Shown here in pieces: positions 23,028-54,304 of a stretch of DNA of 64,000 bases. A program made the translations under genes and the position numbers. The notes under the pieces are model-generated. The model was given only the letters and a program-made list of their open reading frames with translations. It did not search any database and was not told the origin of the DNA. The stretch covers positions 1,426,001-1,490,000 of the forward strand of contig NC_060111.1 in NCBI RefSeq assembly GCF_021155765.1. The letters are read 5' to 3'. The DNA comes from Diprion similis. Lineage: Eukaryota; Arthropoda; Insecta; Hymenoptera; Diprionidae. Positions within the stretch are counted from its first letter, which is position 1. Every line of letters starts with the position of its first letter.

Positions 23028-23041
23028 CCGTCAGATGGCGC
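23028..23041 (+). promoter_or_regulatory. CTCF-like motif, copy 2
   Basis: The same 14-base motif in the second copy of the tandem duplication, in the same orientation and 444 bp away. Confidence 0.4.
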
Positions 23042-23291
23042 GTCAGGCGTAAATTTGAAACTGCTCTTACACGATGTCACGCAATTGCTAACTGGAATAA
23101 TTCTAATTGACTATAAATAATAATTACCTCTACAAAATACCACAATTACTATAACTATCGTGGTTACTGCTTGTTTATTAATACCGCATCTGTTTATTTA
23201 TATTATACTTTTATTTTTGTGACACTGAAATTCGCAAATATTTTCAAGGTGGAATTTACTCAGAGTACAAATTAATTTGGGTTTTTCCTTA

Positions 23292-32750: not shown

Positions 32751-33389
32751 TCACTTCTTTTTGTGCTTTCCGTTCTTCTGGACCTTCGATATCCGCAGTC
32801 TGCAATGGGCACCTCCGGTGTAAAGGACTTCAGCTCTTCCGGCGTCTTCGACGGCAGCGACGAGCGCTTTAACGGCCTTGACGTTTACGTCCTTGGCGCT
32901 GATCTCGAGTGAAGAACCGGGGAAACGATCCCTGAGGGTTTTTCCCAGGACGGCGGCCTGCGCCTCGGAAAGCTCGATGCCGTCGATGCAGAGCCAGGTA
33001 AGGGCTTGGAGGCTGCCGACGACGGTGCCGAGGAAGCTGTGTTCCACCTGGACCTTCTTGACGCTGTCGGTGACGATGAGACCGTTCATCTTGAGGAAGC
33101 TCAGCCCGCAGAGCTTCAGGTACTTCGATATGTGTCGCATCGTCCGGTCGCAATCCTCAAGCGTAACTCGCCAGAAGTTCATCCTGAGGGACTGGAGGCT
33201 CCGGAAGTTAGAAGACAAACAGCCGAAAAAGCTCGTCAGGATCTTGTCGTCGATGAATAAGAGCGAGCCGCTGCTGCCTCCGATCGTCGATTTATCTAGA
33301 GACAAATCAAGCTCGCTAAGCGCGGTGAAACCGCCCAGGAACGGCAGCAGCAGCGGCCCTCGCAAGGCGAGCCGGTCGTTCACTGTCAC
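32751..33389 (-). CDS. NLR exon 9 (last): C-terminal LRRs
   Basis: The exon opens after TTTCCCAG and encodes 212 residues, starting VTVNDRLALRGPLLLPFLGG. It contains repeated LxxLxL-type LRR segments (for example ALSELDLSL, SLQSLRMNFW) and ends in a basic tail KNGKHKKK. Stop TGA at 32751-32753. Phase 0 entry. Confidence 0.9.
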   Translation of the reverse strand: MTVNDRLALRGPLLLPFLGGFTALSELDLSLDKSTIGGSSGSLLFIDDKILTSFFGCLSSNFRSLQSLRMNFWRVTLEDCDRTMRHISKYLKLCGLSFLKMNGLIVTDSVKKVQVEHSFLGTVVGSLQALTWLCIDGIELSEAQAAVLGKTLRDRFPGSSLEISAKDVNVKAVKALVAAVEDAGRAEVLYTGGAHCRLRISKVQKNGKHKKK

Positions 33390-36300
33390 CTGGGAAATTT
33401 GAGGGTGTTAAACGGGGGTTGAAGGTGGAGGATGGAAGGACGTCTTGGCGGACTGATCGGGCCCAAAACTCACCTGGAAGCCTGCCAGTCTCAGGAAAAC
33501 TATCGCCGGACACGCAGGCGGTTCTGCAGCCCTTAAAAGTTCCGCTCCTGCGTCGTCCCGACGCCCCAACCTGGAGAGAGGTCCTTCGTGAACTGCCAGG
33601 TGAAGTCGGGCGTTGCATAAGCTCAGTTCCCGGACGCTTGTGCATCGTAGAAGCTCGGAAAATACCGTCAGGCTGTCGGATTCCTGGGGAAAAATTAATA
33701 CCAAGAGTATGAATGACGGATTTTTATCACGAGATTGATTCCTGAATTTTGTATTTATCGAATTGTTCAAACCGTGAGGAAAAACAGAAGCAATTATATT
33801 TACTGGAATTTTTTTAAATGCTCGGATGCATCAATTATTCATTTCGAATTGTTTGAAATTTTCTTAAAAATCCAGTAAATCCCTTCGATTTCATTTAACG
33901 AATTTGGCGATCATTTTAATTTGCCACAAGCATTGATCTGTAAGTTTTTTAAACAGATTCTTGTAGTTTAAGAATATGCTCAATGCACAAAAATTGGGGA
34001 ATTAACAGGGATGATAAAACCTGCAAGCTATGCCGAAAGATAATACTGCAGCAGTATCGTGCAGTGATTAATAAATCAAGTAAAAAAGTTGGAATATAGT
34101 GCGATTTTTAATAGGCTTTTAATTATTTAAAACTCATGATTAATTGATTCGTTAATTTAGTTGCTGAAAAGGTTAGGCGTTTGCACAGGGACTAGCTGTG
34201 AAATTTGTTCTCGTTTCTCTTCGCAAGTAGTTGGGTGTGTATACAGCTGCGTATGTATACAGGGTGTACATTGGCTTATTATATACCGTAGCTATATACA
34301 TGTATAACGTAAACGTAGCTATATTTGGTGTATAGAATTGAATTTTCAATCTCCGCATCGCGGGTATAATATATTCATCGAATAATTCTCGAAAAACTAA
34401 CAATGATTAATTATATTTATCCGCACCCTTCGGTGATGACTCTTCGTCGCGATATTGTACGAAGGTAAATTTTCGTGATGAAAAATAATGTTCAACACGC
34501 CTACGCAGCTTGCATGAAAATTCGTATACATAAGAGATAATATTCTCACGTCCTTAAAAACGTTAACACCCTCTCATTATACCGGTTAAATAACGATGTC
34601 GGCGATTTTAAACGCCTCGTTAACTCCTGCAGAGCTGGCCCACCCTGGTGGGCACATCCCTGTATAATATACCTTATACTGGAAGCTTGTATAAATTTCC
34701 CTCGCGAAATATTATACAGGGCTACACAACCCTGGTAGGTACGCGACTCTGCATTGCTCCTCGAGATAACTCACTATTAAGACGATGAAACATAACGGTT
34801 ATGGGATCCCTTCTCCCCGTCTCTGAGAGCTGGGCCTCTCGAAATTATATGGCCGTGTATGTATACACGAAAAAGTGAGAAAAGGAAAAAGTACAAGGTT
34901 CTTACGTAGTATGAAAAAAGTTTCGACGGGTACAAAAGGTGAAGAAAAACTTTGGGAGCTTTTGGCGAATAATGTATACGAATAAGTTTGATCAAGTTGA
35001 AATGCGTATAATCGACGCAATTATAACTTAGTCAGAAGCTTGAAACTCTGTGGTTCAAATTTCTTTTTTCACACATTTCGATTTTTATTCTACATGTAGC
35101 TTCGATTCAAACCGCGAGAAACTCGCTTACTTGTATATACTATATATAATGATTAATGATAGGAGGGTTGAGAGTGGATTTTCTTTCGTAAAGTCGGGTG
35201 AAAATTCGGGCAGAGATTTTTCCGTCTGCGGGGAAAAAACGCGAGAGGAGAAAAGCGGCTGCGGCTGTCCGAAACCCGGATAAGCTCGAAGCGTCGCGTC
35301 GCAAAAATATTCGAGCGAGGAATAATATGTCGTCGGGGTGTGTTCTTTCCTTTTTTAGACAAACACACGGACTCCTGATCCCGATTCTGGGCTCCTCTTA
35401 TACTCGAGGCAATTCCAGGTCTGTGATCCTCACCAGCTTTACCCACGAAACCAAACAATATGCTGCTGCTCAGACACCCATCATCAACACCACGGCGTTT
35501 GCCTCGTGTTTGCCGGCTAAATCATCCCCCTGCGGGTATACGGATACACGGGTTTTTAAGGAATACATATTCGGGCGATATAGACGCATCGATTCGGCCG
35601 GATCATTTTCACGAATCCGTCGTAAATCCCCGCGAAGAGAATATTCCACGCGGATTTTCAATACATTTTGAATTCGAGTAAAACCAGCGAAAGAAACGCG
35701 CGTCTTTTTCTGCCCGAGCTGCTGGTGTGATATTCGAATATTATGTTCAAGGGTGTAGCGTATCCTACATCCCCGAGTATTCTAGAACAGGGTTCGTGTC
35801 TTGGCTAACTGTCGGTATCTGTACCGGTTTTAGGAATCCATATCCACAACACTTCTCGTATTTTCAGCTGTCGGTAACTGTCGGTAATTGTGTTTGTGTA
35901 GGAATCTGTATTCAGACCTCTTCTTGTATTCAACTACTTTGAATTTTATCGATCAATGTAAATAATTAGTGATTGATTATTTAGTGATTATTATTTATTG
36001 AGCCAGAATCACCCGCAGAAAAATCGATTTATTAGGGATGGTCCACTCGCAATAATTTTACGTGCTGCAATTGAGCGTCGACCAGACGATTTATTACCGT
36101 CTACATGCAGCTTCGACGCGTTTGAAATCTCGGCGTTCGCTAACATTTCTAGCCAAATGGCTGCCTGCATTCTGTCCAGGAATGCGGGGGTGGGTATTAC
36201 GGGGGTGGCCTATTGTTTCGAGGATCGGTGCAGGTATTATACTAGGCAGCATCGAGGGGTGCAGATTGTGAGTAGGGTGCAGGTAAATCTCCCTTTGTTC

Positions 36301-39300
36301 GATGCTCGAATCCCACCGTCGCCGTGAATTGCGCGGCAGCTTGCAGTCGCGATTTATATACCAAAGGTGTATAAAAATTTCTAACAATTTCATTCGAGAA
36401 TTATTGTGTCTGTGTTATTCTTGTGCTGACCGTATTTTCTCCCTCCAAGTATTATACAAGTATTTTATATTACAGCTCTCTCTCTCTCTATACCCACGGG
36501 CCCGCTAAGTAACGCGTATTCTCATGCAAATTCGAGGGCCACCAGCCCCCAAAAACTCCGTCTCTCTACCTCTTCACCCCCTCCAAGCTGTGAAATTTAT
36601 TGCACGCAATATCACGGAAAAGGATACATTATTACAAAATAAAAAACTAGTTACCAACTCGCACCCAGCACATTATAGGTATACAAGTATAATATACTCG
36701 TTCAGCGATTGGAATATTTACTTATATATTTACTCAACGATTTATCGCTTCAATTTACCAGTGAAAAACGAAAAGAAAATACGATGTGAAAATAAAGTTC
36801 AATTTGGCTGTGTTTTAAAAAATTCACAAAAATCACGTGGTTCGATGCAAACGCGGTTCTTCGCTTTTTATTTCTTCTTCTTTTTTTTTTTTCTCCTTAG
36901 CGGTCTTACGAACAATTCCGCGTATAATCCAAGGGCTGGTAAACCCGGGGTACCTTAACGAGGTTCGTCTATTGCGAGGAGCTTAACCGTCGAGCCGTAG
37001 CTGCCGGGGGTTTGGATAACAGAATACCGGCTATTATTTCAGGAAGTTTCGAGGTGCTGAGGAGTTTGTCTCCGCTGTCTCGGCTACGCACGACGATGGT
37101 TTAAAGTGGATGAGGCGAGCAAATTTGGTGTACATGTGCATACACGGACACATTCATATATACAAGTGGTACATTGTTGTTTGCCTTGTATATGTGTGCC
37201 TATTATGTAACCATAGACGGTATGAGACGGGTAATTAGCAGGATACGAAACAATCGCTTCCTTCCGTTGATCGATAATTAATTACTGTTCATGCATACCG
37301 CATAGCGATGCTGGCGAATTTCGTCATTGTATAACAGAACTCGGTCATAATACCAAATCTTCAAAGACGCGAAGACATAGATTACACGTTTTGTAGAATT
37401 TCAAAACGCAGCAAGAAGATGATATAGTTATAGAAATCCATGCGCATTTTGGTTTGATAAATTTTTGATAATTCTGATGGTTTCAGATTTTTTCCGGAAT
37501 TCTATTCATATCTTCATCCCATAACTACTTGGATTTTATAAATTTTGAAACTCCATCGGATTCACCAAAATGTCGACATACTCACCCCCACACCACAATG
37601 GAATTGCGGTCACTCGACGCGAGACTAATTGATAAAAGATATCCTCGAGAAATCTAGAATGGGGTTTGTGTTTCGGCTAACTGTCGGTAACAGTGTCGGT
37701 GCAGGAATCTGCATCTAGAAATTTTCGCGTGGTGAATTAATAAAAGGGTAAATAAAGACTTACCTCTATTCTGAACGTCCATCCCTCCAGACTGAGTAAT
37801 TTCAGGGTTGAATTTCTAGCGAGTGCGTGGCAGAGCAGACGGGATGGATGATCGTCGAGGGCTAATCGGGGACTCGCCAGATCCAGGAGCTGGAGACAGG
37901 GGGCCTCGGTCAGGGCCAGAACCAGGGGCATCATGTCGGCGGGTCGTGAGGCCCCTGCGGCCCTTAGAGCGTCGAGATTTCGGGCCAGTCTAATGGTCTC
38001 GGCGAGACATCCGGCGTCGAGACTTCCCAGAAGACATTTGGACACGTTCAAGGACCGGAGTTTGCAGTTCGGCTCTCTGAAAGTGGAAGAAAAGCAGCAA
38101 CGAGTGAAAAAAAAAAAATTTCTCGTAATTTGGGACCTGGTAGTAATTAATAGCCACACGCAAAAAAAAAAAATTAGTGGAAATGTTATGGAAATTAGCT
38201 TGACCATGTGACTCGAGCTTGCAGTAAAATTTATTTTTGTATATATTGTTGAAGACGCGTTTTTTACAAATCGACTATTCAAACGGGCTTCCAGCTTTTA
38301 AGCGTTATTTACCAAACTCTGTTGCTGCTATCGCACTCGAAGGGATGAATGTCATTTGATGTTGAGGTATAATAATTCATACGCTCGTTGTTTCGCGCAA
38401 TCGACGACGAATTTCGATCAGCCCGCGGGGGTGGATAATTTTAGCCCGTTAATATCCTGACCCGGTGAGTTTACACGTTTTTTGAAAAAAATATTGCCTT
38501 ATCGGGTGGCGCATGCAATAACAACGCGACAGCAAGTTGTTTATCTTTTTTCGAATAATGTTTGTTCGTTAGGCAGTTTATATCTGGTACAACTACGCAT
38601 GGAAAAACTCGTCGAAAGCCCCTTTTGGAACAGCAAAACCGTGAAATACACGATCAATTGCTGTTATAACGCAATACGGGTATGAATTAATGGAAATCGA
38701 GGGTGCAAGCGTTCGCCATTGCTGATCTGTCAAAGCAGAGTCATCCGTGTATAATCCGCGTCAGCTTATCAGCGAGGGTCTTTTCAAGGGCTGTTTATAA
38801 TTATGAATTTCATTAGCGGAAATCAGGAAATTAAAAAATTTCCCAACAAATTGAAAAAAAAAAATTAGTGCTTTTCAAAGTGAAAAAAATCATATAAAAA
38901 ATTGCGGGGCACTCCCTCACCCTCTCTCGTGGAAAATAAAAGGAAAGGAAACATTTCTAAAGCTTCTTCAAGGAGAACTTTTCCTCACCCCCGTTTCGCA
39001 ATATTTCGTACACACGTATGACGTATTGACAGACATGATACCGCAGCACGGGGCTGCTTTCGAAGCCCCATCGATCACGGAAAAGGACGGAGGGCTGTGA
39101 TACGTGCGTTATAAGTGTCAGAGTTAACCAGACGCATCGCTCGCAAACCCATCAAATTGAATGAACAATAAAACAGCGGTTAGCCCCCGGGAAACAGGGG
39201 GTGGATTTCAAGGACCACAATTTTGCAGGCTTTCCTTGCTTCTTTGTTTCCACGATTTTCCATTCACTCCCCCCTTCGACTTTCCCTCTTTCCTTACATC

Positions 39301-42300
39301 CAATCACCGGTGGTGAAATTCTTCGATTATTACACCCTTGTAATTCTGTTCCAATTGTTATTTTCCACTCTGTTAAATTTTTTCTACCATTTTTTTCTTC
39401 CTTTACTATTACAGACTTGCCAAATCGTTGGAAGGAATCGCTCCGGACTTTATCACGAAGCTTGAAAGTGCGGTTGGAGTAAATGAGATGTTCAAGGAAA
39501 ATCGAACGTTTTTAAAAACTCACCCCTGCCTGTTGAAACTTGCACAACCGCAAACGCCTCGAGAAAGCGTTAAGGGGTAGGAAATGACGAAGCGTTGGCT
39601 AATGGATGCTCGACGGGCGTTTGGTAGTTAGGCACTCAATTCACTGAATGCTTTCAAGGAGTTCGGCCTGGGAACTTGGCAAAGGAGAGAAGGAGACTGA
39701 CTGCGGAGGGTGAAAACGCGAGAGAAAGGGTGGTCCCCCCATCGATTTAGGGAGATAATCGATTTACTACAATATAATTTACACGAACATGGAAATAAGA
39801 GGAAATTACGCAGGAAGTCCAACGACGCTTTTTTCAAGATTATTAATTCAATTATCACAGCGTCGACTAATGCAAATTTTTACCCCGTAAGAAAAAGTCA
39901 TTATTATTATTATTGTTATGATAACCTTCTGCCCTTAATGAATACTCGATTATCTTTCTTGACTTTATCTACAATTTTCTTCCTCCTCTTCACCACCTTC
40001 TTTTTACAAATGCAGAGCAAATAAGGGCGGAAATTAAAATCCAATCCCCCGTGAATTTATCAACAATGCTTTACTGATTTATAACAGGTTGAAATTTTCG
40101 AACCGTATTATTATGTAAAACTGTAAAAGTTCGTTGATCTGTTTGTAAAATATTTAATTAATACTTCATCGATTTTAATAAGCTAGAGCTTGCAAGGGGT
40201 GAGAATTATACACGATAATGATTGTGCTGTTCGTATACGAATAATATAAATTTCATCACACATGTAATAATTAGTTAATTAAAATTCCGTCACATTTTTC
40301 AGGAGACGCAACGGGGCGGAAATATTCGACTTATTTTTCGTCCCTTTTTTCTCTTACTTTCTGATCACCGGCTGAATATCGGCGGCACGTTTTATCAGGG
40401 GTGAGTTTTCTACAATCGTTCGTTAGGAATTGGGTTAAGAATGTTTGCCCCAGAGACGCTTCCTGCAGGTTTATTATACCGCCTGAGAGGAAGTCTTCAA
40501 GAGATCCAACGTTCCATAGAACCGCCATATATAAGGGGAGCACGAATGGTATCCATGAATTTATTAAAGTGAAAGAAGTAAAATTTTCCACCAAGAAAAA
40601 TGCGTGCAGAAATATTTCACGATCGATTCTTCAACTCTTTTAAAAAATTCTCTAATCGATGTGAATTTTACAACCCTTTGTTAAGTTGATAAAAAATAAA
40701 TCGATGGTCTAAAAGGAGACGAAGAATGATAGTGAAAATCGGAATTCTAACGATTTGCAATTTCTAAACTTTGTATTCTGGCCCTTATTCTTCAAATTCA
40801 ATAAATTAAATTTTCCGCTTCTTAAAAAATCCGATATTGTGGCCCGTCTGTGTTTTGATTTCTCTATACTTTGAACTCCACCCGAAAAACCTAAAAAAAA
40901 AAACACCTGAATGCTCACCTTATGGCGCTGAATATCTCGTGGAAACCGGTGCCTTGATGACTCGGAAGATCGCAGGTCGGCAGAGGATGAAGAAGGGGTA
41001 GTCGATGGCAGAGAACACTATCGCTGTTGCGTTTGCTACCGTTTTCCCTATCATTGGGCATAGGGACAGGCCCCAAGCCCAGCGGAAGTCGAGGAAGGGT
41101 GGCGGGCCTCGTCAGACTTCCGTAAACCGTCGGCGCTCCGCGAGGAAGCGACGAGTAGCACCGGTTCAGAGGCAGTGTTCCGAGGGTGCTGGAAGCGCAC
41201 CCGCTGCTCCCTGAGCCAGAACCGGAACCTGAGAAAAGGAATCACTGATCGTTAGAAGCCTGCAGGGGTCAGTTGCTACAAGAATGGCGAAAAAAATGTA
41301 TTTTCGATTAAACCGATAATTTTTTCCCGATTTATCGAGTATAATCGATTAATTTTTAGACCGAGTTAATCGACAGACTCAATTAGTTTTCCTCGTAAGC
41401 TGTTTTTGTTTTTTTTTCAATCCCATGAACGACGCCTTGCAATAACAATTTATGTGGTTACAGTATCGATTATTATGGTTGTCTTACTTACTAAGTATGT
41501 ACCTATTTGATATAATTAGTCAAAGACGAATGAACGTTTTTACCTGAAATTAAAAAATATTTTGAATAAATGTTTGAGAAGAACTTGGCAGCTTGGGGAT
41601 ATAATAATTTAATTAATGCTCGATGTGCGAATAACTCGTATTAATCATGAAACAAATGAGAATCATCGATTTCTGACGAACCAGCCTCTTCAAGTCCACG
41701 ACCTTTTTCTACCCTTGTAAAATGGCTGTGGATATACGGCATTAGCATACGAAAACGTGAGGTGGCACATTCACAAGACGTGTCAACTCGCTCCTCGGCC
41801 TCAATTTTCATCTGCAACAGCGATTGCAGTTCGTGCACGAAGTGAACAAGTCCTGAAAATGCGTTTCTTCGATCGCTTATACCGTTTATTCTTCCTCGCG
41901 TTCGTGTTAAGGTTATTGTAAAGTCACGTTTTACACCTCGAAAACGCGGTGAGCCAAAACTCTGATACCACTCAAGCGATCAGGATGAAACTTGGGCAAT
42001 TGATGCCTTAATTTGGCAAAAAGTGGAACGAAAAAAATTTTACAGATCGGTTATCACTCAACGAAATTGGGAAAATTTTCACAGATGCACCAAAAGGATC
42101 AATCTATCCGGGATGATGCCACTCGGCGTTGATGAAACACACACGTTGAGCCCAGTCTCATAAGATTTGATGGTAAAATGACGAAATGGCCGCTGATCTG
42201 GTTTTACGATTACAAAGAACACCGTCATCTCATTTTGGCGACATTTTTTACCGACGTTACACCCCCATAAACAGCATGCGTGTAATGTCGGTAAAAAATG

Positions 42301-45300
42301 TCGCCAAAATGAGATGACGGTGTTCTTTGTAATCGTAAAACCAGATCAGCTGCCATTTCGTCATTTTACCATCAAATCTTGTGAGACTGGGCTCAAAGTG
42401 TGTGTTTCATCAACGCCGAGTGGCATCATACCGGATAGTTTAATCCTGTTGGCGCAACTGTGAAAATTTTCTCAATTTCGCTGAGTGATAACCGATCTGT
42501 AAATTTTTTTTGAAAATTTTCAAAAAGTAAAACTTCGTTCCACTTTTTGCCAAATTAAGGCATCAATTGCCCAAGTTTCATCCTAATCACTTGAGTGGTG
42601 TAGGAGTATTGGCTCGCCGCGTTTTCGAGGTGTGCAACGCGACTTTATAAGCACCTAACCTAATTCTCACCCTTCCGAACTTAGGTATTTTGACGAAGTT
42701 TCACCTCGGCGTTGTTCGGCCTGCAATTTTCTTTCTCACGCCATGGAAAAATCGCGGAGACGTTGACGAATTCGCTTTCGCATTTCCCCCAAGAGAGGAA
42801 AGTTCCATTTCCACCTCTGCCAAGGCATCTAAATCGTTTTCTATTGGCAATTATCAGCCTTCGGAGAGACGGGTGCGATAATAGAAGAAGTAAATTGAAA
42901 ACGGGTGTCTAAAGTTCTCTTTCTTTATCCCGTCTCTGCTCAATACCCGACAGTTCCACAATACGTCTACGTCAAGTTTAAACCCCGAGGTGAGGCAATT
43001 GGTCTGAGTGGTTTCACAGTTCTAAGAAAATACCCACCGATAAAGTGCGCAACCGATGACAAACGTATTCAAACGATTTTCAAAATTAGCTAAAACAATT
43101 TCACGTTACGTGTCTAAACAATTACAGCTATCAACTAAAGGGGTTTAAATATTTTATCCCACAGCCGTAACATCCCTCCAAATTATTACGTAAATGGCAA
43201 AAAATTTCCACAATTGTCGAGTGTTACCCATTTTTGCAAATTATCTGCAGACGCTTTTATCCCAATTCTACGGCTTTTCGCAGTTTCACTGCAGGAACAT
43301 AGGTGACGAAATATGCAAAAACTCAATCTGCGTTTCACAAAAGATGAAAAAATCTACATAAAAAAAAAAAAAAAGCAAAATAGGGACTGTACAAGGGAAA
43401 AAGTATCTGTTAGGGTGGAAGATGATAAGAAGCGTAAAAAATGCAGAGAATAATAAAAAGTGGAGAAGAATAGGCGGGGGTGGGGGGGTGGAAACTATTG
43501 GTAAACTGTCGCCGCGAGGACTTTCACACCCGTAAAATAAGGGATAGCGTTATGCGGACAGGAAAGAGTCCTCGGCTCGTCGACGAGCTTTTTTTTCCCC
43601 TGTCGTAAATCGATTCGTCAACCCGTTTCAAAGCCGCGATGAGACGGATAGAAGCGGTTGTATTCCGAAGACGCTAAATCATTACAAGAAGACCTGACCT
43701 AACGTCGGGTATTTCTGATCGTCGGACCGCGTGCGATAAAAGTCCAAGCTGACAGGAAGACGGGTAGAAAACGCTGACGGATGAATCGGGGGGAGAAAAT
43801 GATGGGAGGAAAAAAAATCCTGGAAGGTCAGAGGGGTGAAAAACAAGACACCGAGGGATGAGTCGCGGAAAAAAACCTGCAGGCGCCGCCAATTATCGGA
43901 TCGCCTGCATCGTTTGGCGATAAATTTCAACCCAAATTGGATCCTTCGTGTATGTGTTTTTCTTTTTTTTTTTTATGTTTAATTTTCATTCGAAAAAAGT
44001 TCGAGTATCGGATTTTCGGAACGTCGCGTCGTCGGTTTCATTTCATGGACGAGAAATTATTATACCGATCGGTATAGCGAACGCTAAATAATACGATCTA
44101 GAAGTTATTTTCCTCCCCTGGTTTCTAGGTCGCGCAACCCTTGATTTATGGCTACCAATCAATTCGCCGGGAATAACAAGTGGACGACGGAAAAGTGTAT
44201 TAGAGAAACTTTTCGATGAGCAGAAAAACAAAATTGAACGTTATATATATTAGGGTGCTTCGTTTGAGACGACTATTTTTTTTTTTTTTCACTCCCGACC
44301 TAAAATTTTATCAAACATGTCGAAAGAAAAATTCCCTTTAAGTTACAGACCTCAAAATTAACATTATAAGTACTTTCTCTTGGCGTGAAAAGATTTACCA
44401 TCTAAAATTTTACGTCGGGAGTGAGAGAACAAAATAAAAAAAAAAAAAAAACGGTCATCTCAAACGAAGCACCCTAATAGTATATTTATATTTGTAAATA
44501 TTGTTAATATCACATTATCGCTTGAATGAACGTGTTGAAGTTATTTTCAACAAGTCGGATGTAATTAGTTCTTCCGGTTTGTCAGAGCCTCGACAAAGTC
44601 TCAATCTCCACTTTCACCCTTTCTGCAACCTACCCGAAGTTGAACTTGAATAACGAACAACATTACAGAGTATAACCAGAACAACGCGCAACGAGATTAC
44701 CGCAATCCCGAGTGCTTTTGGCGAACTCTCGTTCGTCTCTTAAGTGAATGAGACGGGGCGTGGTGAAGGTGGGTGAAATCGGGGGGAAACCGGGGCTGGA
44801 AGCGAAGGAAGCAGCTATCGCGTATAACCCATTACGGAGGGATGAGAACGGGGCTTGACACTGTTGATTAATACGTCGGATAATCGCGAGTTGCAAATCG
44901 GTGGAATTAAGCGGCTTCGGAGAATATACTCGCGGTTTGAAATCGGAATTTGTCGAGAATCCGCTCGCTGACACATCTCGCCTCTTATTCGCCAAATTAT
45001 TATTAATGTTGCTGGTACCTGACGCGTTGAAAAGCCGCCGAGAAATGCTGCACGCGGATTCTAAATCACCAATTTATTCCTTGGGTATGTATAAAGCAAA
45101 GCTAAGCTGTATCAGCCTGCGCACTTCTCCTCAACAATCATCCGTGGCGTCTTTTAACCAAATAGGCCTTCATCTTTATTCATATTAACCCTGTAATATA
45201 GCCTGTTTTACCGCAGGAGAAGGATCTTCAATTTTCCTGCATCATGTATACAGGATTTATACTATATATGTGTATAGGTATATACAGTGTAATAGGTAAT

Positions 45301-48300
45301 ACCTTCGTAATACATACTGGGAAAATGAGTTTCCTGAAATTTAAATAATCCTGTCAATACACCAAGCCTTGATTTTGCTTATTCGCGCTGTTAAGGAACC
45401 GGTAGAAGGGGTAGAAAATTTGTCAAATTTTACGATTATGCTGCAGATAGTTTTTCTTGAATGATCACAAAAGGTTCGTTAGCTCGAAATTTTTTTGTCA
45501 ATTTTTGCTCTGCAGATTAAGATCGTGATCGAATTTTTTTGAAAGAAGATTAAAAAATTTTTTTAACCTACATTGCGTTGGAAGATGTGATGAAAGACTT
45601 GAATCATTTTATCGTATAATGGAGTTCATTAAATTAATTACATTCAGCGCATCCCGTATATTTGAAACAGAAAAATTGACACGAGTTGTGCGAAAGATAT
45701 GGAAAAAAATCAAATTTTTTCAGGTACGGATATGTACTAAAAATGCGATACAGGGATGAATCACTCATCCTATAAACTCCGGCAAAAGATACGCAAACGT
45801 CAACCGTATCACGTGTGTATAGAAATGTTTACGCAGCTACTCGCGGAATCCAGGAAGCTAAAATTCGGGAATATATATACATATCCTCTATATCCTTGGC
45901 TATCTATGTCTCTCTTTCTCTTTTTCACTCGTTCAAAGCGTTTGAAAATAGGCTGTTTGCTGACACGCCGATATTCAAACGATATCTCTCGGCTTGCGTA
46001 TACAAGATAGCGAAATATCGAGAATCGTGGTTGTTAGGTATGTACAACACCGATATTGACACAGCATCTCAAACTCCGTCCGCACTTTAGGTATCAAAAC
46101 TTTATATCCACATTCAAACCCCTTTTTCCCTCTCTTTCTCTCTCTCTCTGTCTTTTTACTGACAACCGTATCGTTCGTTTTTCATCATTATTCATTTATT
46201 TATTTATCTTTTTTTTCTCTCTTTTATTGGTATCAATAATGTTGCCCATTACTTTCGTTCTCATCCCTTGGCAACGATCACCTCGTATCGGAAAATATTA
46301 GGATTATATTACATATCAGGCTGGGATCACGATACGTAAACAGGGAAATAAAAATTTCGAGCTTTTCTTTTCTTTACGACGGTCGATGGATAATTTCGAC
46401 GATAAAAAAAGACAGAAAAAATTAGGATCAAAAATAAAATTATAAACTTTACACCGCCCTGATTTTATATATATATATCAGATTCTCGATGACGTATCGA
46501 TTACTTATATCGTAAAATTTCTTCCTCCTCGAAATTGAAATAACATTTACTCACCCATGCTGATTCCCGAGCTGGACGGATCCTCGTTTTTGGCACCCCA
46601 ACTTCCGGCGAGGTTCAGGGCGAGGAGAGGCCGTTCCTTGAGGAGCTCAGCCACTGAGGCGAGTCCTTCGCGGCCACATCCTAGATGGGGCAAATGTAGG
46701 GCCTGGACCTGGACGCAGCTTCTCAGGGCCTCACATACCCTCGATACTTGTTCACCGGACAAATTCATGTCCAAGACTAAGCGAGCTAATTGCGGTGAGG
46801 CGTTGGCCAAGCCCCGACAGAGTGCGCTGACCACGCACTCGAGCCTGAATTGAAAGACGAAAAAAAAACTGTCAAACTCTCTCCTCATAGATTTCGAGTA
46901 AGCGTACGATTATCTTTTAAACCTTGCGTTAAGCGCCTACAGACAGGCAGCCGAAGCTACACATTGAACAAACGGCGATGCGAGATGTAGCTTCGGTTGC
47001 CTATCTGCAGGCGTTTAGCGATGAGTTTCACGGAAAACTCTCGGTTCACGACGTATAACGGCGTGTTATTAACGAGATGGAAGACCCAGGGGACTTTGAA
47101 AGTTTGACGATAGGTCGACGTATGTACGGTATGATGTCTATGATAAACTGGGTGATACAGATCGCAGCAAACGCATTTCGATAAGCGCCTGCAGACAGGC
47201 AATCGAAGCTACATATTGAACACGCAGCAATGCGGGATGTAGCTTCGGTTGCCTATCTGCAGGCGTTTAGCGATGAGTTTCACGGAAAACTCTCGGTTCA
47301 CAGCGTATAATGGCAAGGGTGTTATTAACGAGATGGAAGACCCAGGGGACTCTGAAAGTTTGACGGTAGGTTGACGTGTGTATGATGTCTATGATAAACC
47401 GGGTGATACGGATCACGGCAAACGCTTCGGATACATACGCAAGGTACTTATTACTCGAAAGTTTGAGCGACAAGTTATATGTTCAAAGTTACGTAAGCCT
47501 CTACTGTATATGGATACAGTTACTGTGCAAGCTGAAAATTTAACAATGCATGCACACGCTGCATATATGTATGCACCCTCGCCGTTACGTCGACTCGACA
47601 AACTTCTCCAGCACAATCTGCACTCTATACGCGTGTAGGAGCGCCGAGTATTGTGACCCTCGAGTTATCTGGGTTTCAGAATAGTCACAGGGTGTATACC
47701 TACTTCGGTATACGCTAGCGGAGTAATCAGGTTTAATTGAATATTCTTGACACCGTGCTGCGAAATTTGCCTCGTTTTGGTAGCAGATATTGTAATTGAA
47801 AAGGAAAGTTTCAGCTTCGAAACAAATCTCTGATTGCAGCTGTTTAATAATATCCACCGAGTTTATTATAACACAATTATAGTATATTTAAGAAGCGATT
47901 TTCGTTCCAGGGGGTCGGAAAATACGAATATTTAAATCGTTCTTATTTATAATGTAATCAGGATAGCATCAGCGAAAATGGAATTAAACCTTAAATGATT
48001 ACTGATCACAATTTTCCCGACTTTTAAAAGTGAAATTTTCATTTCTCGCGTACGATTACTACAGATACCGATACAACAATTTTCTTCACACGTATTAGTG
48101 TGGAGGAACGTTGAGTTCAACAAAAGGGAGTCACAACTCACCTGTCATGAGCCGATTCCTCCAGACAAGTGATGACGAGTTCGAAATCGTTGAGTCGATT
48201 TTTTCCGAGTACGCTCTTCAGGTGGCGAGCAAGCCGCTGAGCTTCGTCGACGGGAAACTCGTGTCCAAGAAGCGAGGTGATCCTGACCAATCTGACGCTC

Positions 48301-51300
48301 TCATTTGCGGCAAGGGCCTCAAAAAAGTCATCAAGAAACCTGGGATCCGAGCCTCTTTCAACCTGAAAAACAACCTCGAGAGCCTCGAGTGTGCAGGCCG
48401 AAGACTCGAGAATGCGGGCCCAACCCTCAAGCTCGATAGGAACAGTGTGGACGAGAGGGGCGACGCGAGGCTCGTTGGGAGCGGGCCCAAACCCGGGGCC
48501 AGCACCGACGAGCCTGCAGACGGCGGTGATGTTGCCGTCACTTGCGCCGGCCGATTTCAGGAGGGAGAAAACGGCGCGCGGTGGGACCTCGAGGGGGCAG
48601 AGCTGGTTCAGGATCAAGTGGGTCTTGGGGCCCAGCAGGCCCGCTAGGTGCCCGATTATACCGGTGGGAAGGCCTTCCAGCTCCCGGCGCAGGATGTTGG
48701 CGTACTGAGCAACCGAGGTGAGGTAATAGGCGGCCAGGAACTCGGCGACTGCCGCGTGAATCGGCGTGAAAAGCTCAGGCTTCCTGCGCTGACCGAAGGT
48801 CAGGCCCCGTGTGAGGAAACCCAGACGCGTCACTTCTAGCCCCCCACCTCGGGCCCGAAGCTCCGCCTCCGTGTAGCAGCAGCGCCCCTCGCGGAGCGCT
48901 CCCAAAGCCAGTCGACCGAAGTCTTCGAGCCGTTTTCTGCAGTGACCTGGTATTTCTTCGGTGTAGGATAGCGGCGGGTCCAGGCTTCGCTTTACGATGC
49001 ATTTCACCGCTGCTTGAACCAGGGCGCTACCCTCTTCTGGGAGGCTGCCTGAAAGGGTGAAGGAATTTTTAATTAGCCATGAGAAAGAAGGTGGAAAAAT
49101 AATCGACGAGGAGAAGGTCAGGTGGAGGATTTTTTTCTCTCAATTGTAAAGCGTGCTTTTCTGGGAAAATTGAAAAAATCGCATGTGAGGAATTCGTGGT
49201 TCGTTTTGTTTTTTATTACTTTGGGATTGGAAAATTGATCCTTTCATTTATGTCAAAATATGAGCCTAAAAAATAACTGTTTTTGTTGTGGTCTGTTTTT
49301 TTTTCTTCTCGTAATTTTCAACAACAGAAACGTATTTTATTTCTCACAATAGTTTCAATTCACATGCTACGAATATTTCTATACGTGAAATGAAGGCTTA
49401 TGCAATTATGGATCAAGTGATTTTAAACATTTTTAAACTAATCGCAGAAATTTTCAGCTATTTCAAGCAGTTTCAACATTAGTGCGTTTTCAGCTTCCGC
49501 AGTTGAAGGAGTTTCAAACGATTTCTAATCGGTGTTAAGTGATTTCAGGTGGTTTCAAACCAATTCAAAATTTTGGACAGTTAATTTCATCTAGCTTGCC
49601 TGAAAAGCGCGCTGTTCATTGGTTGCTTCGAGTTCAAACTAATCACCAAGCGATGAACTTCATGTACCATAAATATGCGATACTAACAATAATAACAATA
49701 ATAATGAATCCATCTCTCAACCTTCACTTTTCGCGTCGAACCCCCCCCCCCCCCCCCCCCCCCAAATATTTGTTCAATCTATTGTACAACATACCTGAGT
49801 CCTGGTAGAGCGAACACAGCATAACCCATCCAAGGGGATGTTGTCCAAGTTGTCGAACGGATTGCGGCTGGGCGTTAAGGACCTCAAGGAAGTCGCGTAC
49901 ACGATCGGCGATGTCGTTGTGGATGAAATAGGCTGCGCACAGTCTCTCGACGTGTGGCCACTCGAGACCAGCGAGGTTGACGCGCCTCTGAACGAGGGGC
50001 GAAAGTGCCCCAGAGTTCTTGGGCGAGCAGGTGACCAGGATGCGGGCATCGGGGAAGAGGCGACCCTCCAGAAGGTCAACCGCGTCGCTGAGGGAGGGCC
50101 GGCCTCCCACACACTCGTCGTACCCATCCAGGACGAAGAGGACGCGGTCCTCCATCAGGTGCAGCGTCCTCCACACCTGGGTAGCCGCGTCCCCCAGCCC
50201 CGAAGTCCGTGGCAGGAGCTCTCGCGACAGGTAACTCAGCACCGAACTCCCTCGCAGTTCTCGTAGCGGCACGATCAGCGCCAGCGCCGGTGATCCACCG
50301 TCGACCTGGGTCGCCCATTGGTGCAAGAGCCGCAGGCACAGCGTCGTTCGTCCGCTTCCTGGACCCCCTTCGATAGCCACTCGACGAGGCGCTTCCGACA
50401 CTGAGCCGTCACTGAGCTGAAATTCAGTGAGATTCATTGCTTGAGGTCCACTCTCGCCGTTAAAGCGCTTTGGAAAGCCTACTCGAGATGCATCTCGCCG
50501 ATTCGATTCATTTTGCGATATGTTGTAGGGCATGGAGGAATAGTGGATACGTATTTTTTTTCAAGTGCCAACTCGGTCGTTCAAGAGGTGAAAACCACCC
50601 GTAAATATCAAAGAAGTGCAGCTGCAGAGGGTTTCAAGAGTCCTGAAAAATTCGAACTTACTGTTTGACCTCAAGGATACTCGGGCTTTATTATATGGTG
50701 ATATTTCCATGCAGGGTTTACCTGATTCTGTGCAACCACGCGTATGGGGATTGCGTTACAAGTGCCCGCATCCGCACTGCAGATATTATATCACATATCT
50801 AGATAAACGTACATCAGTCACAGAGGCACGATTCACCCGGTACCGCAAATTTGGCTAAATTTAAATATTGAGCAGGGATGTACTCTCCCGAGAGAATGAC
50901 GCATGTAATATCATATGCATAGTAATACGCATAAGTATGTAAATAATACAACCCATTCCCAGTAGTACATTTCCATGTAAACCAAGCACCGTTGAATACA
51001 GTTTAGTTCTCCGTGTCCATTTATACTGTATATACATAATACGTCCAACCAGCCCAGGAATCTCTCCACCTTTGCATCAGATGCCTATTTGCATTCCATT
51101 GAAGCGACCAGTGCGGTGGCAGTTTGGAAGCATTAGTATAATTAGTGACAGTATGAACCGGTTGAGAATTGTGCCCGAGTTGGACACAAATTGAAAATAA
51201 TATTCCTCAGGTCAGGCGGTAGGTACCTACCTCTAGCACAAAGAGACAATTCGCATTGATCAACAAGGAAGTCACGGAACTCGAGAAAGATCGTTTCTCC

Positions 51301-54300
51301 TCGACCCGACTCCATTAGTGAAGCCGTGCATCAGAGCGAGGAAACTGCGCACACAGGTGATATCGGTAGTGATGAATACACGCTGCACACGCACACTAAG
51401 ATTCCGGAGGCGTTACTCGTCCTCGTAAAAATGTTGGCGTGCGGGTTTTCCGTTGCCAATTTATCATACTTTCGCTTGGTATCTTGGGCTGCGCGATAAC
51501 GCGTGTGTGGAAACGCCTTGCAGAGGGGTTTGTTTCGGAGAACAGAACCGGCTACCCGCTACTCAGAGGATTGAAGCTATAAACCGGCGGAAGTCTATTT
51601 CTTCCTTCCTTCTTTCCGTTATTCCTACTTCGTTCTTCCCCTCTTCCTGCGCCTCTATCTCTAACGCAATAAAATACATCCCGCGATACTCTCTGATCCG
51701 CTCCAGGTAGCCTCGTCTCATCTGTTTATCCACGGTTGAAGGATCCCGCGAATTCAACCCCGTTTCGACTTCTTCCACTGCCTGATTCCTCCCTCGAACC
51801 TTGATCGGTAAAAATCTAGGATCCCTTCGGCCGGGGACTTCTTCCGGTTGTATTTTATGCCAGTGAAAAGGGGCGTAATCGTTCAGTAGAAATCGTGCAA
51901 ATTATCCCCCCCCCCCTTTTTTTTTCTCATTCGCAAGTAAAATTAGTTCCAATTACTTTGGAGATGTAAATTTCCTGTTTTTTATCCTGGTCCCCTAATG
52001 TCGTCCCTTATTCCACCACGTCTTTCATAGTTCGGTTGAAACACTGTCGTGTGTGTGTGTGTGTGTGTATAACGCGTGAACATTTGCAGTTGCGAAAAGC
52101 CGTTCATAATGCAGCGGTAGACCGGGGAATTCCAATTATCTGTATAATCATAAAGTGAACAGCTGGAATGGCACACTGCCCAGTTTCCAGCGTCCTCCGT
52201 TTCCCCCAGGCACGGGCCAGCCCTAAACACACTGAAATTTCACGTGCGCACCCCATGTGCCTGGTTTCACAAAAAATATCTCTAATTGTTCCGTTGCAAC
52301 CTTCATGTTAAACGTCCTCCGTTTAAAGACCCTTCGATGCTTCTCGGAGGCTTTGGAAAGCCTACTCGAGATGCATCTCGCCGATTCGATTCATTTTGCG
52401 ATATGTTGTAGGGCATTGAAAAATACTGAACACGTATTTTTTTTCAAGTGCCAACTCGGTCGTTCAAAAGGTGAAAACCAACTTCGTTGCCTTTAAGGTC
52501 ATAGCTTAAGATTCCATAAGGAAGGCGTTAAAAGCGTGAGTAATTGTAATGCAAAGGTACAACAAGGGGAGGGGGGTGATTAATCAAAGCGTAAATAGAC
52601 TCACCCTAACGGGGGCAAAGATCTGGTCGATTTTTATATTCTCAAGGCGATGCTCTTGCTCGCTTTTGTGAATCAGCTGGAGGTGAGGCTGAAAATGAGC
52701 CGGACAAAGCGTGCCAAGAGGTAAAGGAGCCGCCCACGCCGGCAGGTGGGGTGGATCCCTGGTCCCCAATTCCCTGTAGAAGGTCTTCAAAAATCTGCAA
52801 CAATACCGTGAGAGAGGATCAGTCGATACTCGACCATCTTGAGCTACGTGGTCTTGTATATACATATACATATATCATCAGGAATAATACAGGTCTGCAA
52901 CTAACAAGCTAAACAGATTTTTTTACAGCGTAACTTGTAGATTTCTACTCTGTGAAACCGGGAAAAGTACTAGAAAAATTCCATCAAGTTAGGTTTTTTC
53001 ACCTTGAACTTGTGTTTGTAGTTTCATTTGTAATGAAACTTTAGTTTAACTCGAAATCTGGTATTTTATCTTTGGTTCTAAATATCCTCTGCAAAAGTGA
53101 TTTCTTACTTTCATTAAATATGCATTAGAGTGAGACTCGAGAATAAGTACAAATAGGGAAAGATAAAATGGAAAGCGGAAGTGAAATGTCAAAGAGAAGA
53201 AGAAGAGCCGGTTTCATATATCGTCCTTTTTCTTACGCAAAAACCTTGTATTTCACAAAACTACTGTAAATAATAAAGAGCAATGGAAGTCATTTTTGTA
53301 TTCAGCACACTCAAAAACATATCAATTACAAAAAACATCCCATACAGTTCAAACAACATACGTTTTTGCAGACCTGTTTAATCATTGAATATTTTTCTTC
53401 TTGCAATTATATTATCCCTCGCTTTAAGATTACTGCAATTAGTCACGATGCGACTGAATCAGGGATGCAAAGCCAATTCCAATCGATTTCATCACGAATT
53501 GAAATCTATTCCTCCCTCTGCCACGGCTGAGGTATTCTTGTAACCTTTGATCTGCGCGAGACTGGATTCGACAAATGTTGACTTGGTTGATCAGTCAAAC
53601 GAGATACCCACCCTGTACCTCAAGGCAACCGTGCTATGGGACTTTATACCGTAAACATGGTACAACAATGCCTTCTTCTGCGAGCAGCAGACGACAATGA
53701 ACGAAACTTTGTGGTGTTTTCTTTCTTTTTTTTTTTTTGATTCTTCTCTTTTCTCTTCACCTGCACTTCCACGTGTTATAACAAAGAGCTCTCGTATCGC
53801 GTTTTAAATCACGAATATAAATTTAGTTATGGTTTCTCCTTTGTTTTTTTTAATTCTATTTACTATTTTCTACTAATTTCAATTAATTATATGTATACAA
53901 TGAATTTTGAATCCTGGAGTTAATTAGCGGGAATGCGGGTCAAATTGCAGTCGAAGGGTGGAAACTATTACAATTGACAAACGGATGTGACCATTGGAGT
54001 CCAGTTTGCGAAATTTCGAGAGTTTAGTCAGAAAAGACCGAAACCAACTACTTTTTCTACTCCGTGGCTTCCGTTGATTTCCAAATAAAATAAAAATAAC
54101 TCGACTCTTTACTAACCTGAGCAATCTTCCAAGCGGATCTCTTTCCGGGGATGAAGGTCCTCCGACTCCTAGTCGACGGGACGACGCTCTGGCGCTCGAA
54201 ATGTAAGCCGTTGGAGCTGGGGGTGGACTGCATGGTGGACAACATATCGGACTTCCGCCTCCAGGTGTCGAGAGGGTGTAGCTTCGCTCCAATTCCTTAG

Positions 54301-54304
54301 ACAT
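32751..54304 (-). CDS. NACHT-LRR (NLR-type) receptor, nine coding exons, 1222 residues
   Basis: Nine exons bounded by GT-AG join in agreeing phases into 3669 bases of open frame (exons listed separately). Residues 1-126 are Pro/Gly/Ser-rich then basic, with no visible CARD, PYD or other death fold. A NACHT ATPase begins near 137: Walker A GGPGSGRTT (143-151), Walker B VLFVLDGYDE (D223-E227), sensor-1-like ILVTCSP, and HPLGWVMLCSLY before the winged-helix region. The segment FTPIHAAVAEFLAAYYL is the hallmark that precedes LRRs in animal NLRs. LRR-like helices and strands run from about 490 to 730 and from 836 to 1220, split by a Ser/Gly/Pro-rich exon. NLRs are cytosolic sensors that oligomerise on nucleotide binding, usually in immunity. 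The Walker A lysine is arginine here, so catalysis may differ. N-terminal exons could be missing. Confidence 0.9.
33474..33683 (-). CDS. NLR exon 8: LRR
   Basis: Exactly 70 codons between CCCCAG and CAG|GTGAGT. It contains SVRELSLCNARLHLAV and IVFLRLAGFQ. Phase 0 on both sides. The intron to exon 9 is only 84 bp (33390-33473). Confidence 0.9.
33684..37763. other. Intron 7 of the NLR gene
   Basis: No exon recognised. It holds a small inverted repeat at 34636-34740 (arms ending CCCTGTATAATAT and ATATTATACAGGG). A dispersed ~60-bp sequence containing GGCTAACTGTCGGTA occurs at 35790-35905 and again at 37660-37720. A GC-richer stretch at 35.2-35.7 kb has overlapping open frames without splice support. 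Confidence 0.6.
37764..38076 (-). CDS. NLR exon 7: LRR
   Basis: Starts after CCACTTTCAG with EPNCKLRSLNVSKCLLGSLD and ends RIE at GAG|GTAAGT. Two to three LRR units, including LQLLDLASPRL and TLKLLSLEGW. Phase 2 in, phase 0 out. Confidence 0.9.
38077..40918. other. Intron 6 of the NLR gene
   Basis: About 2.8 kb with no exon, repeat family or RNA gene that I can support. Confidence 0.6.
40919..41228 (-). CDS. NLR exon 6: Ser/Gly/Pro-rich linker
   Basis: Open for all 310 bases between CTTTTCTCAG and AAG|GTGAGC. It begins SGSGSGSSGCASSTLGTLPL and is rich in Pro, Leu, Arg and Ser, without LRR pattern. Phase 1 in and phase 2 out exactly bridge exons 5 and 7, which are not compatible with each other, so the exon is required for an open frame. 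Probably a disordered insertion between two LRR blocks. Confidence 0.82.
41641..41852 (-). CDS. Possible extra (cassette or terminal) exon within NLR intron 5
   Basis: After an ATTTTCAG acceptor (exon would start at 41852) a frame stays open for 70 codons, starting LVHFVHELQSLLQMKIEAEE and ending in TAA at 41641. Its entry phase fits exon 5. A weak donor (AAAAAG|GTCGTG) could also return it to exon 6 in phase. It has charged, helix-like composition and no LRR. It lies beside a foldback element, so it could equally be transposon-derived. Confidence 0.3.
41918..42650. mobile_element. Foldback (long inverted repeat) element
   Basis: Left arm 41918-42261 and right arm 42281-42650 are inverted copies separated by a 19-bp loop. 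Arms match from the ends (ACACCTCGAAAACGCGG) to the centre (TTTTTTACCGAC). About 340 bp per arm with modest divergence, one arm having a small insertion. No transposase seen. A transcript through it would form a long hairpin. Confidence 0.92.
44249..44478. mobile_element. 230-bp MITE with ATTAGGGTGCTTCGTTTGAG ends
   Basis: Terminal inverted repeats of about 27 bp (ATTAGGGTGCTTCGTTTGAG and its reverse complement), extended inward through T/A runs to CACTCCCGAC. No coding capacity. The flanks are TA-rich, so the target duplication cannot be set. Confidence 0.88.
46555..46844 (-). CDS. NLR exon 5: LRR
   Basis: Starts after TTCAATTCAG and ends ATGG|GTGAGT. Contains ARLVLDMNLSGEQVSRVCEA and VQALHLPHLG, which are ribonuclease-inhibitor-like LRRs with strand plus helix. 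Phase 2 in, phase 1 out. Confidence 0.92.
46845..48141. other. Intron 4 of the NLR gene
   Basis: Contains two tandem 252-bp units with hairpins (46931-47425). The rest is unremarkable. Confidence 0.65.
46931..47425. repeat. Two tandem 252-bp units, each with a 32-bp-stem hairpin
   Basis: Unit 1 starts at 46931 and unit 2 at 47183. Each opens with a stem-loop: arms 46931-46962/46985-47016 and 47183-47214/47237-47268, paired almost completely over 32 bp around a loop of about 22 bases. The outer arm includes GCAGACAGGC and GAAGCTACA. Units are about 90 percent alike by eye. Confidence 0.88.
48142..49048 (-). CDS. NLR exon 4: winged-helix/HD2-like region and first LRRs
   Basis: Starts after CCTTTCAG with SLPEEGSALVQAAVKCIVKR and ends GAC AG|GTGAG. 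Contains ELFTPIHAAVAEFLAAYYL, the conserved F-x-H-x-EFLAA pattern at the end of the NLR nucleotide-binding module, then leucine-rich segments such as TLEALEVVFQV and SVRLVRITSLLG. Phase 1 in, phase 2 out. Confidence 0.94.
49049..49794. other. Intron 3 of the NLR gene
   Basis: Short intron whose 5' part (minus sense) contains a 23-base G run (C run at 49741-49763 on the plus strand). Otherwise AT-rich. Confidence 0.7.
49741..49763. repeat. 23-nt homopolymer C tract
   Basis: Uninterrupted C on the plus strand, G in the sense of the NLR transcript, starting 31 bases downstream of the NACHT exon donor. Such a tract can form G-quadruplexes and is prone to sequencing and replication slippage. Confidence 0.95.
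49795..50416 (-). CDS. NLR exon 3: NACHT ATPase domain
   Basis: Starts after GAATTTCAG with LSDGSVSEAPRRVAIEGGPG and ends TCA G|GTATGT. Walker A is GGPGSGRTT with arginine in place of lysine, Walker B is VLFVLDGYDEC, and the sensor-1 strand reads ILVTCSP instead of the usual TSRP. The GxP-like HPLGWVMLCSLY follows. Phase 0 in, phase 1 out. It is the most GC-rich exon. Confidence 0.95.
50468..50598. repeat. 130-bp direct repeat, copy 1
   Basis: Nearly identical to 52351-52480, both starting CTTTGGAAAGCCTACTCGAG and ending GGTGAAAACCA. It lies about 50 bp upstream of the NACHT exon acceptor. Confidence 0.9.
52048..52069. repeat. (GT)n microsatellite
   Basis: About ten uninterrupted GT units. 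Confidence 0.9.
52351..52480. repeat. 130-bp direct repeat, copy 2
   Basis: Second copy of the 50468-50598 sequence, in the same orientation and the same intron. Differences cluster in one 15-bp stretch in the middle. Confidence 0.9.
52605..52794 (-). CDS. NLR exon 2: linker before NACHT
   Basis: Starts after TTGTTGCAG and encodes FLKTFYRELGTRDPPHLPAW through KSEQEHRLENIKIDQIFAPVR, ending AGG|GTGAGT. The final helix and IDQIF just before the NACHT are what NLRs have at the start of this module. Phase 2 in, phase 0 out. Confidence 0.88.
52795..54116. other. Intron 1 of the NLR gene
   Basis: AT-rich, with no repeat or exon recognised. Confidence 0.6.
54117..54304 (-). CDS. NLR exon 1 (first coding exon found)
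   Basis: Starts MSKELERSYTLSTPGGGSPI and is Pro/Gly/Ser-rich, ending CTC AG|GTTAGT. The phase matches exon 2 (Arg codon split 2+1). The ATG at 54304 is the only methionine start, but the frame stays open upstream. An acceptor-like TCTAAG lies a few bases inside, so further upstream coding exons cannot be excluded. Confidence 0.7.

What the first reader, a model, noticed from the sequence alone, without database searches (positions are those of the whole stretch)
32751..54304. Complete NLR-type NACHT-LRR gene in an apparent insect genome
Nine exons with independent GT-AG borders join without a single phase conflict into 1222 residues carrying NACHT, winged-helix-like and LRR modules. Canonical NLRs are known to be absent from Drosophila and are generally regarded as rare or lost in insects. 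An intact, intron-rich one with no visible death-fold N-terminus would be an unusual intracellular sensor. GC-rich exons, large introns and no stop codons argue against a recent pseudogene.
Basis: partly seen in the sequence, partly recalled or inferred. Interest (0 to 1): 0.85.

Follow-up and report, generated by a model that had tools for sequence, protein, structure and literature searches.

The report
Single-copy NOD-like receptor gene in insect
An insect chromosome carries one intact-looking gene for a NOD-like immune receptor, a type missing from fruit flies; similar genes are already listed for ants, so it is a useful example with odd nucleotide-binding residues and not a new kind of gene.

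Summary
On the minus strand nine GT-AG exons join in phase into an open frame of 1222 residues, or 1239 with a second in-frame acceptor for exon 3. A simple gene finder trained on this genome's kinases recovers exons 3-9 at the same borders (exon 3 by its donor); exons 1 and 2 are weaker.

The protein has a NACHT domain (Pfam 75 bits, cut-off 26.7). It aligns through the winged helix to NOD2-type structures, and its C-terminus to ribonuclease-inhibitor-type LRRs. No death fold was found. It is single copy in a 269-Mb insect genome. So it is an NLR.

The claim of rarity is half right: a 2025 paper's tree uses NLR or NLR-like sequences from six ant species, and the paper describes a CARD-less shrimp NLR that binds STING. 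STING is encoded here too.

Two catalytic residues depart from the aligned NLRs: Walker A lysine is arginine, sensor-1 arginine is serine. I read it as a CARD-less regulatory NLR, possibly weak at ATP hydrolysis. Function, expression and orthology are untested.

The parts
54117..54304 (-). candidate exon 1 (first ATG at 54304; low-complexity Pro/Ser-rich N-terminus)
   Evidence: Open frame, donor CAG|GTTAGT; coding support weak
52605..52794 (-). candidate exon 2 (pre-NACHT region ending ..EHRLENIKIDQIFAPVR)
   Evidence: Acceptor TTGCAG, donor AGG|GTGAGT; donor recovered by the gene finder at its lowest penalty
49795..50416 (-). exon 3, NACHT: Walker A GGPGSGRTT (Arg codon CGA at 50350-50348), Walker B FVLDGYDE, sensor-1 region TCSP
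   Evidence: Pfam NACHT 75.1 bits on the 1239-aa form, 72.2 on the first 334 aa of the 1222-aa form; donor recovered by the gene finder; residue positions
50417..50467 (-). optional 17-codon 5' extension of exon 3 (alternative in-frame acceptor at 50467)
   Evidence: 1239-aa form; scores 31.7 against 27.2 bits to the best PDB match but the splice site looks poorer and touches a dispersed repeat
48142..49048 (-). exon 4, winged helix, HD2 (FTPIHAAVAEFLAAYYL) and start of the LRR region
   Evidence: Alignment to NOD2-type structure runs into this exon; gene finder
46555..46844 (-). exon 5, LRRs
   Evidence: Within the stretch matching ribonuclease inhibitor and NLRC4 LRRs; gene finder
40919..41228 (-). 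exon 6, Gly/Ser/Pro-rich insert inside the LRR array
   Evidence: Open frame, borders recovered by the gene finder; codon score weak
37764..38076 (-). exon 7, LRRs
33474..33683 (-). exon 8, LRRs
   Evidence: (dropped at the highest intron penalty)
32751..33389 (-). exon 9, LRRs and stop codon
32542..32547 (-). AATAAA, possible poly(A) signal about 200 bases after the stop
   Evidence: Sequence read directly
50467..50597 (.). 131-bp dispersed repeat, copy 1, at the 3' end of intron 2
   Evidence: 14 matches in the genome at 71-100% identity, these two included, a lower bound
52350..52480 (.). 131-bp dispersed repeat, copy 2 (95% identical to copy 1), in intron 2

Best explanation
A functional-looking, single-copy, nine-exon insect gene for a NOD-like receptor without death-fold effector domain (low-complexity N-terminus, NACHT, winged helix/HD2, RI-type LRRs interrupted by a low-complexity insert). 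I think it works as a regulatory NLR in the manner of NLRC3/NLRX1 and of shrimp LvNLRC: the LRR arc binds a ligand or partner, the NACHT module holds a nucleotide and changes shape, and the protein releases or sequesters a signalling partner such as STING instead of nucleating a death-fold filament. Shown: gene structure, NACHT, NLR-type match through the winged helix to HD2, RI-type LRR similarity, single copy, a STING gene in the same genome, substituted Walker A lysine and sensor-1 arginine. Inferred: expression, ligand, partner, and reduced ATP hydrolysis.
For: Open 1222-aa frame with 8 of 8 GT-AG junctions in phase; exons 3-9 recovered by a gene finder with a far lower reversed-sequence null; NACHT 7.5e-21; best PDB matches NOD2-type, NLRC4, NLRP3, the first aligned to the HD2 'FLAAYYL' motif; LRR part to ribonuclease inhibitor 1.5e-5; the NACHT-to-HD2 part finds only this gene in the genome at E <= 1; no CARD or Death match on this contig; STING ligand-binding domain on C5; shrimp LvNLRC, also without CARD, binds poly(dA:dT) by its LRRs and STING by its NACHT domain (PMC12370184, passages).
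Against: No RNA evidence. Exon 1 and the start codon lack independent support, so an N-terminal domain could be missed. Codon usage alone does not settle the strand: the antisense frame in register scores the same over the whole gene. LRR motif counts are only modestly above shuffles (strict motif 10 against 5.2, reached by 163 of 5000 shuffles; loose motif 21 against 17.5, reached by 1034 of 5000, insert left out). STING interaction is analogy only. No insect orthologue could be compared with the tools at hand.
Confidence: 0.5

Rival explanations
1. A conventional activating NLR whose N-terminal effector exon was missed, assembling with a death-fold adaptor upon ligand binding.
For: The N-terminal exon is uncertain; pre-NACHT region and WH histidine align with NLR chains; Walker B intact.
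Against: CARD (2 matches) and Death (10 matches) searches of the whole genome place none on contig C7; PYD and DED were not searched; Walker A Lys to Arg and sensor-1 Arg to Ser are unexpected in an ATP-driven switch.
Confidence: 0.25
2. A decaying or non-expressed NLR relic, with the substituted catalytic residues as early signs of decay.
For: Substituted Walker A and sensor-1 residues; dispersed repeats in intron 2; no RNA evidence.
Against: No stop or frameshift in 1222 codons, all 8 introns GT-AG; model frame scores about 12 s.d. above base shuffles for host codon usage.
Confidence: 0.15
3. A different STAND NTPase with fortuitous LRR-like repeats (for example NPHP3-, TEP1- or NWD1-like).
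For: Weak NPHP3_N and AAA_22 matches.
Against: Both are under their Pfam cut-offs (17.6 of 24.8 and 15.4 of 27 bits) whereas NACHT is at 75.1 of 26.7; PDB matches of the NACHT exon at E <= 0.1 are 11 of 11 NLR chains, counting two unlabelled ones recalled as rabbit NOD2 and one labelled as an MBP fusion; C-terminus matches RI-type LRRs, and no WD40 or TPR was reported.
Confidence: 0.05
4. A gene gained by horizontal transfer from bacteria or a virus.
For: NACHT matches occur in bacteria: the family search rings in 11 of 14 control genomes, over the cut-off in 3.
Against: Eight introns; best PDB matches are animal NLRs; no relative confirmed in one scan of genome contigs (75 pattern matches, 0 confirmed) and one of viral contigs (2, 0 confirmed), scans that find close relatives only.
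Confidence: 0.03

Closest known systems
Shrimp LvNLRC (PMC12370184; section 6 and passages seen)
   Same: Arthropod, N-terminus of unknown function without CARD, central NACHT, C-terminal LRRs; placed with the NLRC subfamily by its authors
   Different: 1485 aa with a 349-aa N-terminal region; tested for ligand and STING binding, this one is not; sequence not available here to align
NLR or NLR-like sequences of ants (Acromyrmex, Trachymyrmex, Cyphomyrmex) listed in the Fig. 2 legend of PMC12370184
   Same: Insects; perhaps the same order as this genome (order inferred, not tested)
   Different: Only their use in a tree was seen; architecture and sequence not seen, orthology not tested
Vertebrate NOD2 and NLRC4 (PDB 5irm/5irl, recalled as rabbit NOD2; 3jbl/4kxf NLRC4)
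   Same: NACHT, winged helix, HD2 with the aligned His and FLAAYYL motif, RI-type LRRs
   Different: No CARD found here; Walker A Arg instead of Lys, sensor-1 Ser instead of Arg; low-complexity insert in the LRRs
NLRC3 and NLRX1
   Same: NLRs that act on antiviral signalling mainly through NACHT and LRRs (as discussed in PMC12370184, passages)
   Different: Orthology to either was not tested

Membership tests
NLR (NACHT-LRR) family | NACHT domain | tested here: met
   Pfam PF05729 75.1 bits, E 7.5e-21
NLR (NACHT-LRR) family | NACHT-associated winged helix and HD2 after the NACHT domain | tested here: met
   No Pfam match in exon 4; alignment to a NOD2-type structure runs to residue 461 of the 1239-aa form incl. 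IHAAVAEFLAAYYL
NLR (NACHT-LRR) family | C-terminal leucine-rich repeats | tested here: met
   phmmer with the exon-6 insert left out of the query: 16 sequences at E <= 1, best ribonuclease inhibitor 1.5e-5, NLRP4F 0.0011, NLRC4 0.013; a few carry non-LRR labels such as tubulin or kinase; no Pfam LRR over its cut-off; motif counts modest
NLR (NACHT-LRR) family | Walker A lysine of the P-loop | tested here: not met
   GGPGSGRTT, Arg where the aligned NOD2-type, NLRC4 and NLRP1 chains have Lys; the domain match is kept, so this bears on catalysis more than on kinship
NLR (NACHT-LRR) family | Walker B acidic motif | tested here: met
   FVLDGYDE at residue 220 of the 1222-aa form
NLR (NACHT-LRR) family | sensor-1 arginine (TSRP in the aligned NOD2-type chains) | tested here: not met
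   TCSP at 255-258 of the 1222-aa form
NLRC/NLRP subfamilies with effector | N-terminal CARD, PYD, BIR or Death domain | tested here: inconclusive
   None found in the N-terminus and no CARD or Death match on contig C7; PYD, BIR and DED not searched genome-wide; N-terminal exon uncertain
NLRC3/NLRX1-like regulatory NLR | binds STING and dampens its signalling | not testable with these tools
   STING gene present; binding needs experiment
NLRC (LvNLRC/ant) orthologue group | groups with these sequences in a tree | not tested
   No insect or crustacean protein collection on hand

The most novel reading that the evidence does not exclude
Insects of this lineage keep one NLR that has given up the canonical ATP switch (arginine P-loop, sensor-1 arginine lost) and acts as a nucleotide-locked, CARD-less scaffold that restrains STING signalling, a mode that none of the nine papers I opened (in passages or sections) describes for insects.
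Probability: 0.15. Interest if true: 0.65.

Novelty: new member of a known kind. Interest (0 to 1): 0.42.

Why it matters
A review still treats NLRs as absent from Drosophila and various arthropods (PMC7308585, passages), so the role of intracellular NLRs in insects is open. A single-copy, structurally clear gene in an insect that also has STING makes the question testable by knock-down. The substituted P-loop lysine, if shared by orthologues, would show whether an NLR can work without the usual ATP cycle.

Tried and rejected
Rejected: pseudogene (no stop in 1222 codons, host-like codon usage); other STAND family; recent bacterial or viral transfer (introns). The 312-bp satellite frames at the left end are periodicity, not genes. 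The other two NACHT hits of the genome are not NLRs: C4 reads like Cdc6/ORC (my reading of the translation), C5 is a NACHT-ankyrin frame.

My gene finder over-predicts at low intron penalties: the four paths have 19, 24, 19 and 24 exons and each holds a stop formed across a splice, since the split codon at junctions is not checked in that script nor; so only agreement at borders is used. Exon-3 start is unresolved: 50416 has the better-looking acceptor, 50467 the better match to NOD2-type chains (31.7 against 27.2 bits), while the match to NLRP1 is better with 50416 (E 0.0092 against 0.026). NCBIfam and PADLOC gave no useful match for the NLR exons: recD E 0.016 and EruA E 0.019, GajB E 0.0016 and mad8 E 0.046. 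Literature: ten searches with Hymenoptera, insect, arthropod, Apis or Acromyrmex combined with NACHT, NLR or NOD-like receptor terms. Nine papers were opened, in passages or sections, none whole; the other listed papers were seen as titles and abstract starts only, and the lists were cut (20 of 35; 20 of 119; 20 of 22). Among the nine none characterises an insect NLR gene, but the termite transcriptome paper PMC3712931 reports eight 'NLR-containing' sequences and one NACHT-WD40 protein, and PMC12370184 uses ant sequences. 'NACHT' in the two Apis papers opened is part of author names; PMC5770391 and PMC10403496 name only the KEGG pathway.

Full report
What was checked. The finding claims a nine-exon NACHT-LRR gene on the minus strand of 54304-32751. 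I read the sequence and rebuilt the gene. All eight introns are GT-AG, phases fit at every junction, and one stop codon ends the frame at 32751. Exon G+C is 0.53-0.62; seven introns have 0.355-0.452 and the 84-base last intron 0.548. An AATAAA lies about 200 bases after the stop.

Is it more than chance? I trained codon usage on 17 kinase segments of the same genome. The joined frame scores -0.005 bits per codon against -0.205 +/- 0.016 for base shuffles; the antisense frame in register scores the same -0.005, so codon usage alone does not settle the strand; that rests on splice sites and homology. Exons 1 and 6 do not score best in the model frame. A gene finder trained without the window's own kinase scores 320 bits on this strand, 100.7 on the other and 28.4 on the reversed sequence, and returns the donor of exon 3 and exons 4-9 with identical borders, with exon 3 opened at an ATG at 50533. 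At its lowest intron penalty it opens exon 3 at 50416 and adds the exon-2 donor; at its highest it drops exon 8. Exon 1 is not supported independently.

Two copies of a 131-bp dispersed repeat lie in intron 2 (14 matches in the genome, these two included). One ends at the 50467 acceptor, and the ATG at 50533 lies inside it, which makes both doubtful; yet the 17 residues that the 50467 acceptor would add raise the score to a NOD2-type chain from 27.2 to 31.7 bits. The choice is open.

What the protein is. Pfam gives NACHT at 75.1 bits (cut-off 26.7) and nothing else over a cut-off. Of 12 distinct PDB sequences at E <= 1, 11 are NLRs: NLRC4, NLRP3, NLRP4F and two chains labelled 'Uncharacterized protein' (5irm, 5irl), which I recall as rabbit NOD2; the twelfth is a shieldin chimera at E 0.74. 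The NOD2-type alignment runs from before the P-loop through the winged helix to the HD2 motif FLAAYYL. The NACHT exon alone matches 11 of 11 NLR chains at E <= 0.1. The C-terminal part, given without the exon-6 insert, matches ribonuclease inhibitor at 1.5e-5 and NLRP4F at 0.0011. Fourteen repeat starts picked by eye are spaced 27-44 residues apart except across the insert. Motif counts are modest evidence: with the insert left out, strict L..L.L 10 against 5.2 expected (163 of 5000 shuffles reach it), a looser motif 21 against 17.5 (1034 of 5000); with the insert, 12 against 5.7 (48) and 24 against 17.7 (322).

Odd residues. In the alignments the P-loop reads GGPGSGRTT where the NOD2-type, NLRC4 and NLRP1 chains have GKS, and the sensor-1 stretch reads TCSP where the NOD2-type chains have TSRP. 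Walker B (FVLDGYDE) and the winged-helix histidine (FTPIHAAVAEF) are kept. The names and roles of these motifs are recalled. The Arg codon is CGA at 50350-50348, two or more changes away from a lysine codon, so a single sequencing slip is not the cause. That such changes weaken ATP hydrolysis in P-loop enzymes is recalled, not tested here. The NACHT-ankyrin protein of the same genome keeps GKS.

Surroundings and genome. The window is C7:1426001-1490000 of a 269-Mb, 60-contig genome. The matches all lie on contigs numbered 1 to 14. The 103 matches to PF02949 odorant receptors make it an insect. A sawfly such as Diprion would fit size and number of large contigs; that is recall and untested. The NACHT-to-HD2 part finds only this gene in the genome. 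The NACHT family search found 3 places at E <= 0.001: this gene, a NACHT-ankyrin frame on C5 and a Cdc6-like frame on C4. At E <= 0.1 CARD has 2 matches and Death 10, none on C7. STING's ligand-binding domain is on C5 in four pieces, two of them over the cut-off.

Against the literature. PMC7308585 (passages) says that Drosophila and C. elegans lack NLRs and that various arthropods lack bona fide ones; PMC3308963 (passages) reports none known in ecdysozoans in 2012; PMC3712931 (passages) reports NLR-containing sequences in a termite transcriptome. PMC12370184 (section 6 and passages) describes a shrimp NLR with an N-terminus of unknown function, NACHT and LRRs, no CARD, which binds poly(dA:dT) by its LRRs and STING by its NACHT domain, and lists six ant species among the sources of NLR or NLR-like sequences in its tree. 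So insect NLR-like genes are already deposited, even if hardly discussed: among the nine papers opened from the searches named in Tried and rejected none characterises one.

Conclusion. This is a real NLR gene of an insect, a new member of a known kind. My mechanism (a CARD-less regulatory NLR, perhaps acting on STING, with a modified nucleotide switch) is inference by analogy, at about even odds; that it is an NLR I hold at above 0.9.

Noticed in passing
646-17577: Satellite array: 312-bp unit, 54.3 copies, 98% matches. Since 312 is a multiple of 3 it gives a ladder of 103-aa open frames, nearly all on the minus strand, with two listed on the plus strand (8181, 16917).
   Followed up: partly
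18966-20603: Single open frame of 545 aa with a protein kinase domain (1.6e-55); an upstream exon is not excluded.
   Followed up: no
26224-27348: Single open frame of 374 aa, cation efflux (zinc transporter) family with a His-rich loop.
   Followed up: no
50467-50597 and 52350-52480: 131-bp dispersed repeat, two copies in one intron 95% identical, 14 matches in the genome in all at 71-100%.
   Followed up: yes
L004:2-7786 (G000:C5:2594000-2603900): NACHT-ankyrin gene with an open frame of 2893 aa and many near-identical ankyrin repeats; no Pfam match was reported in the part before the NACHT, which looks to me like a nuclease-type domain (by eye, untested).
   Followed up: partly
L037-L040 (C5:3035402-3038360): STING ligand-binding domain in four exon pieces.
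   Followed up: no
22221-23059: Tandem duplication of a 444-bp unit, 1.9 copies, 92% matches.
   Followed up: no
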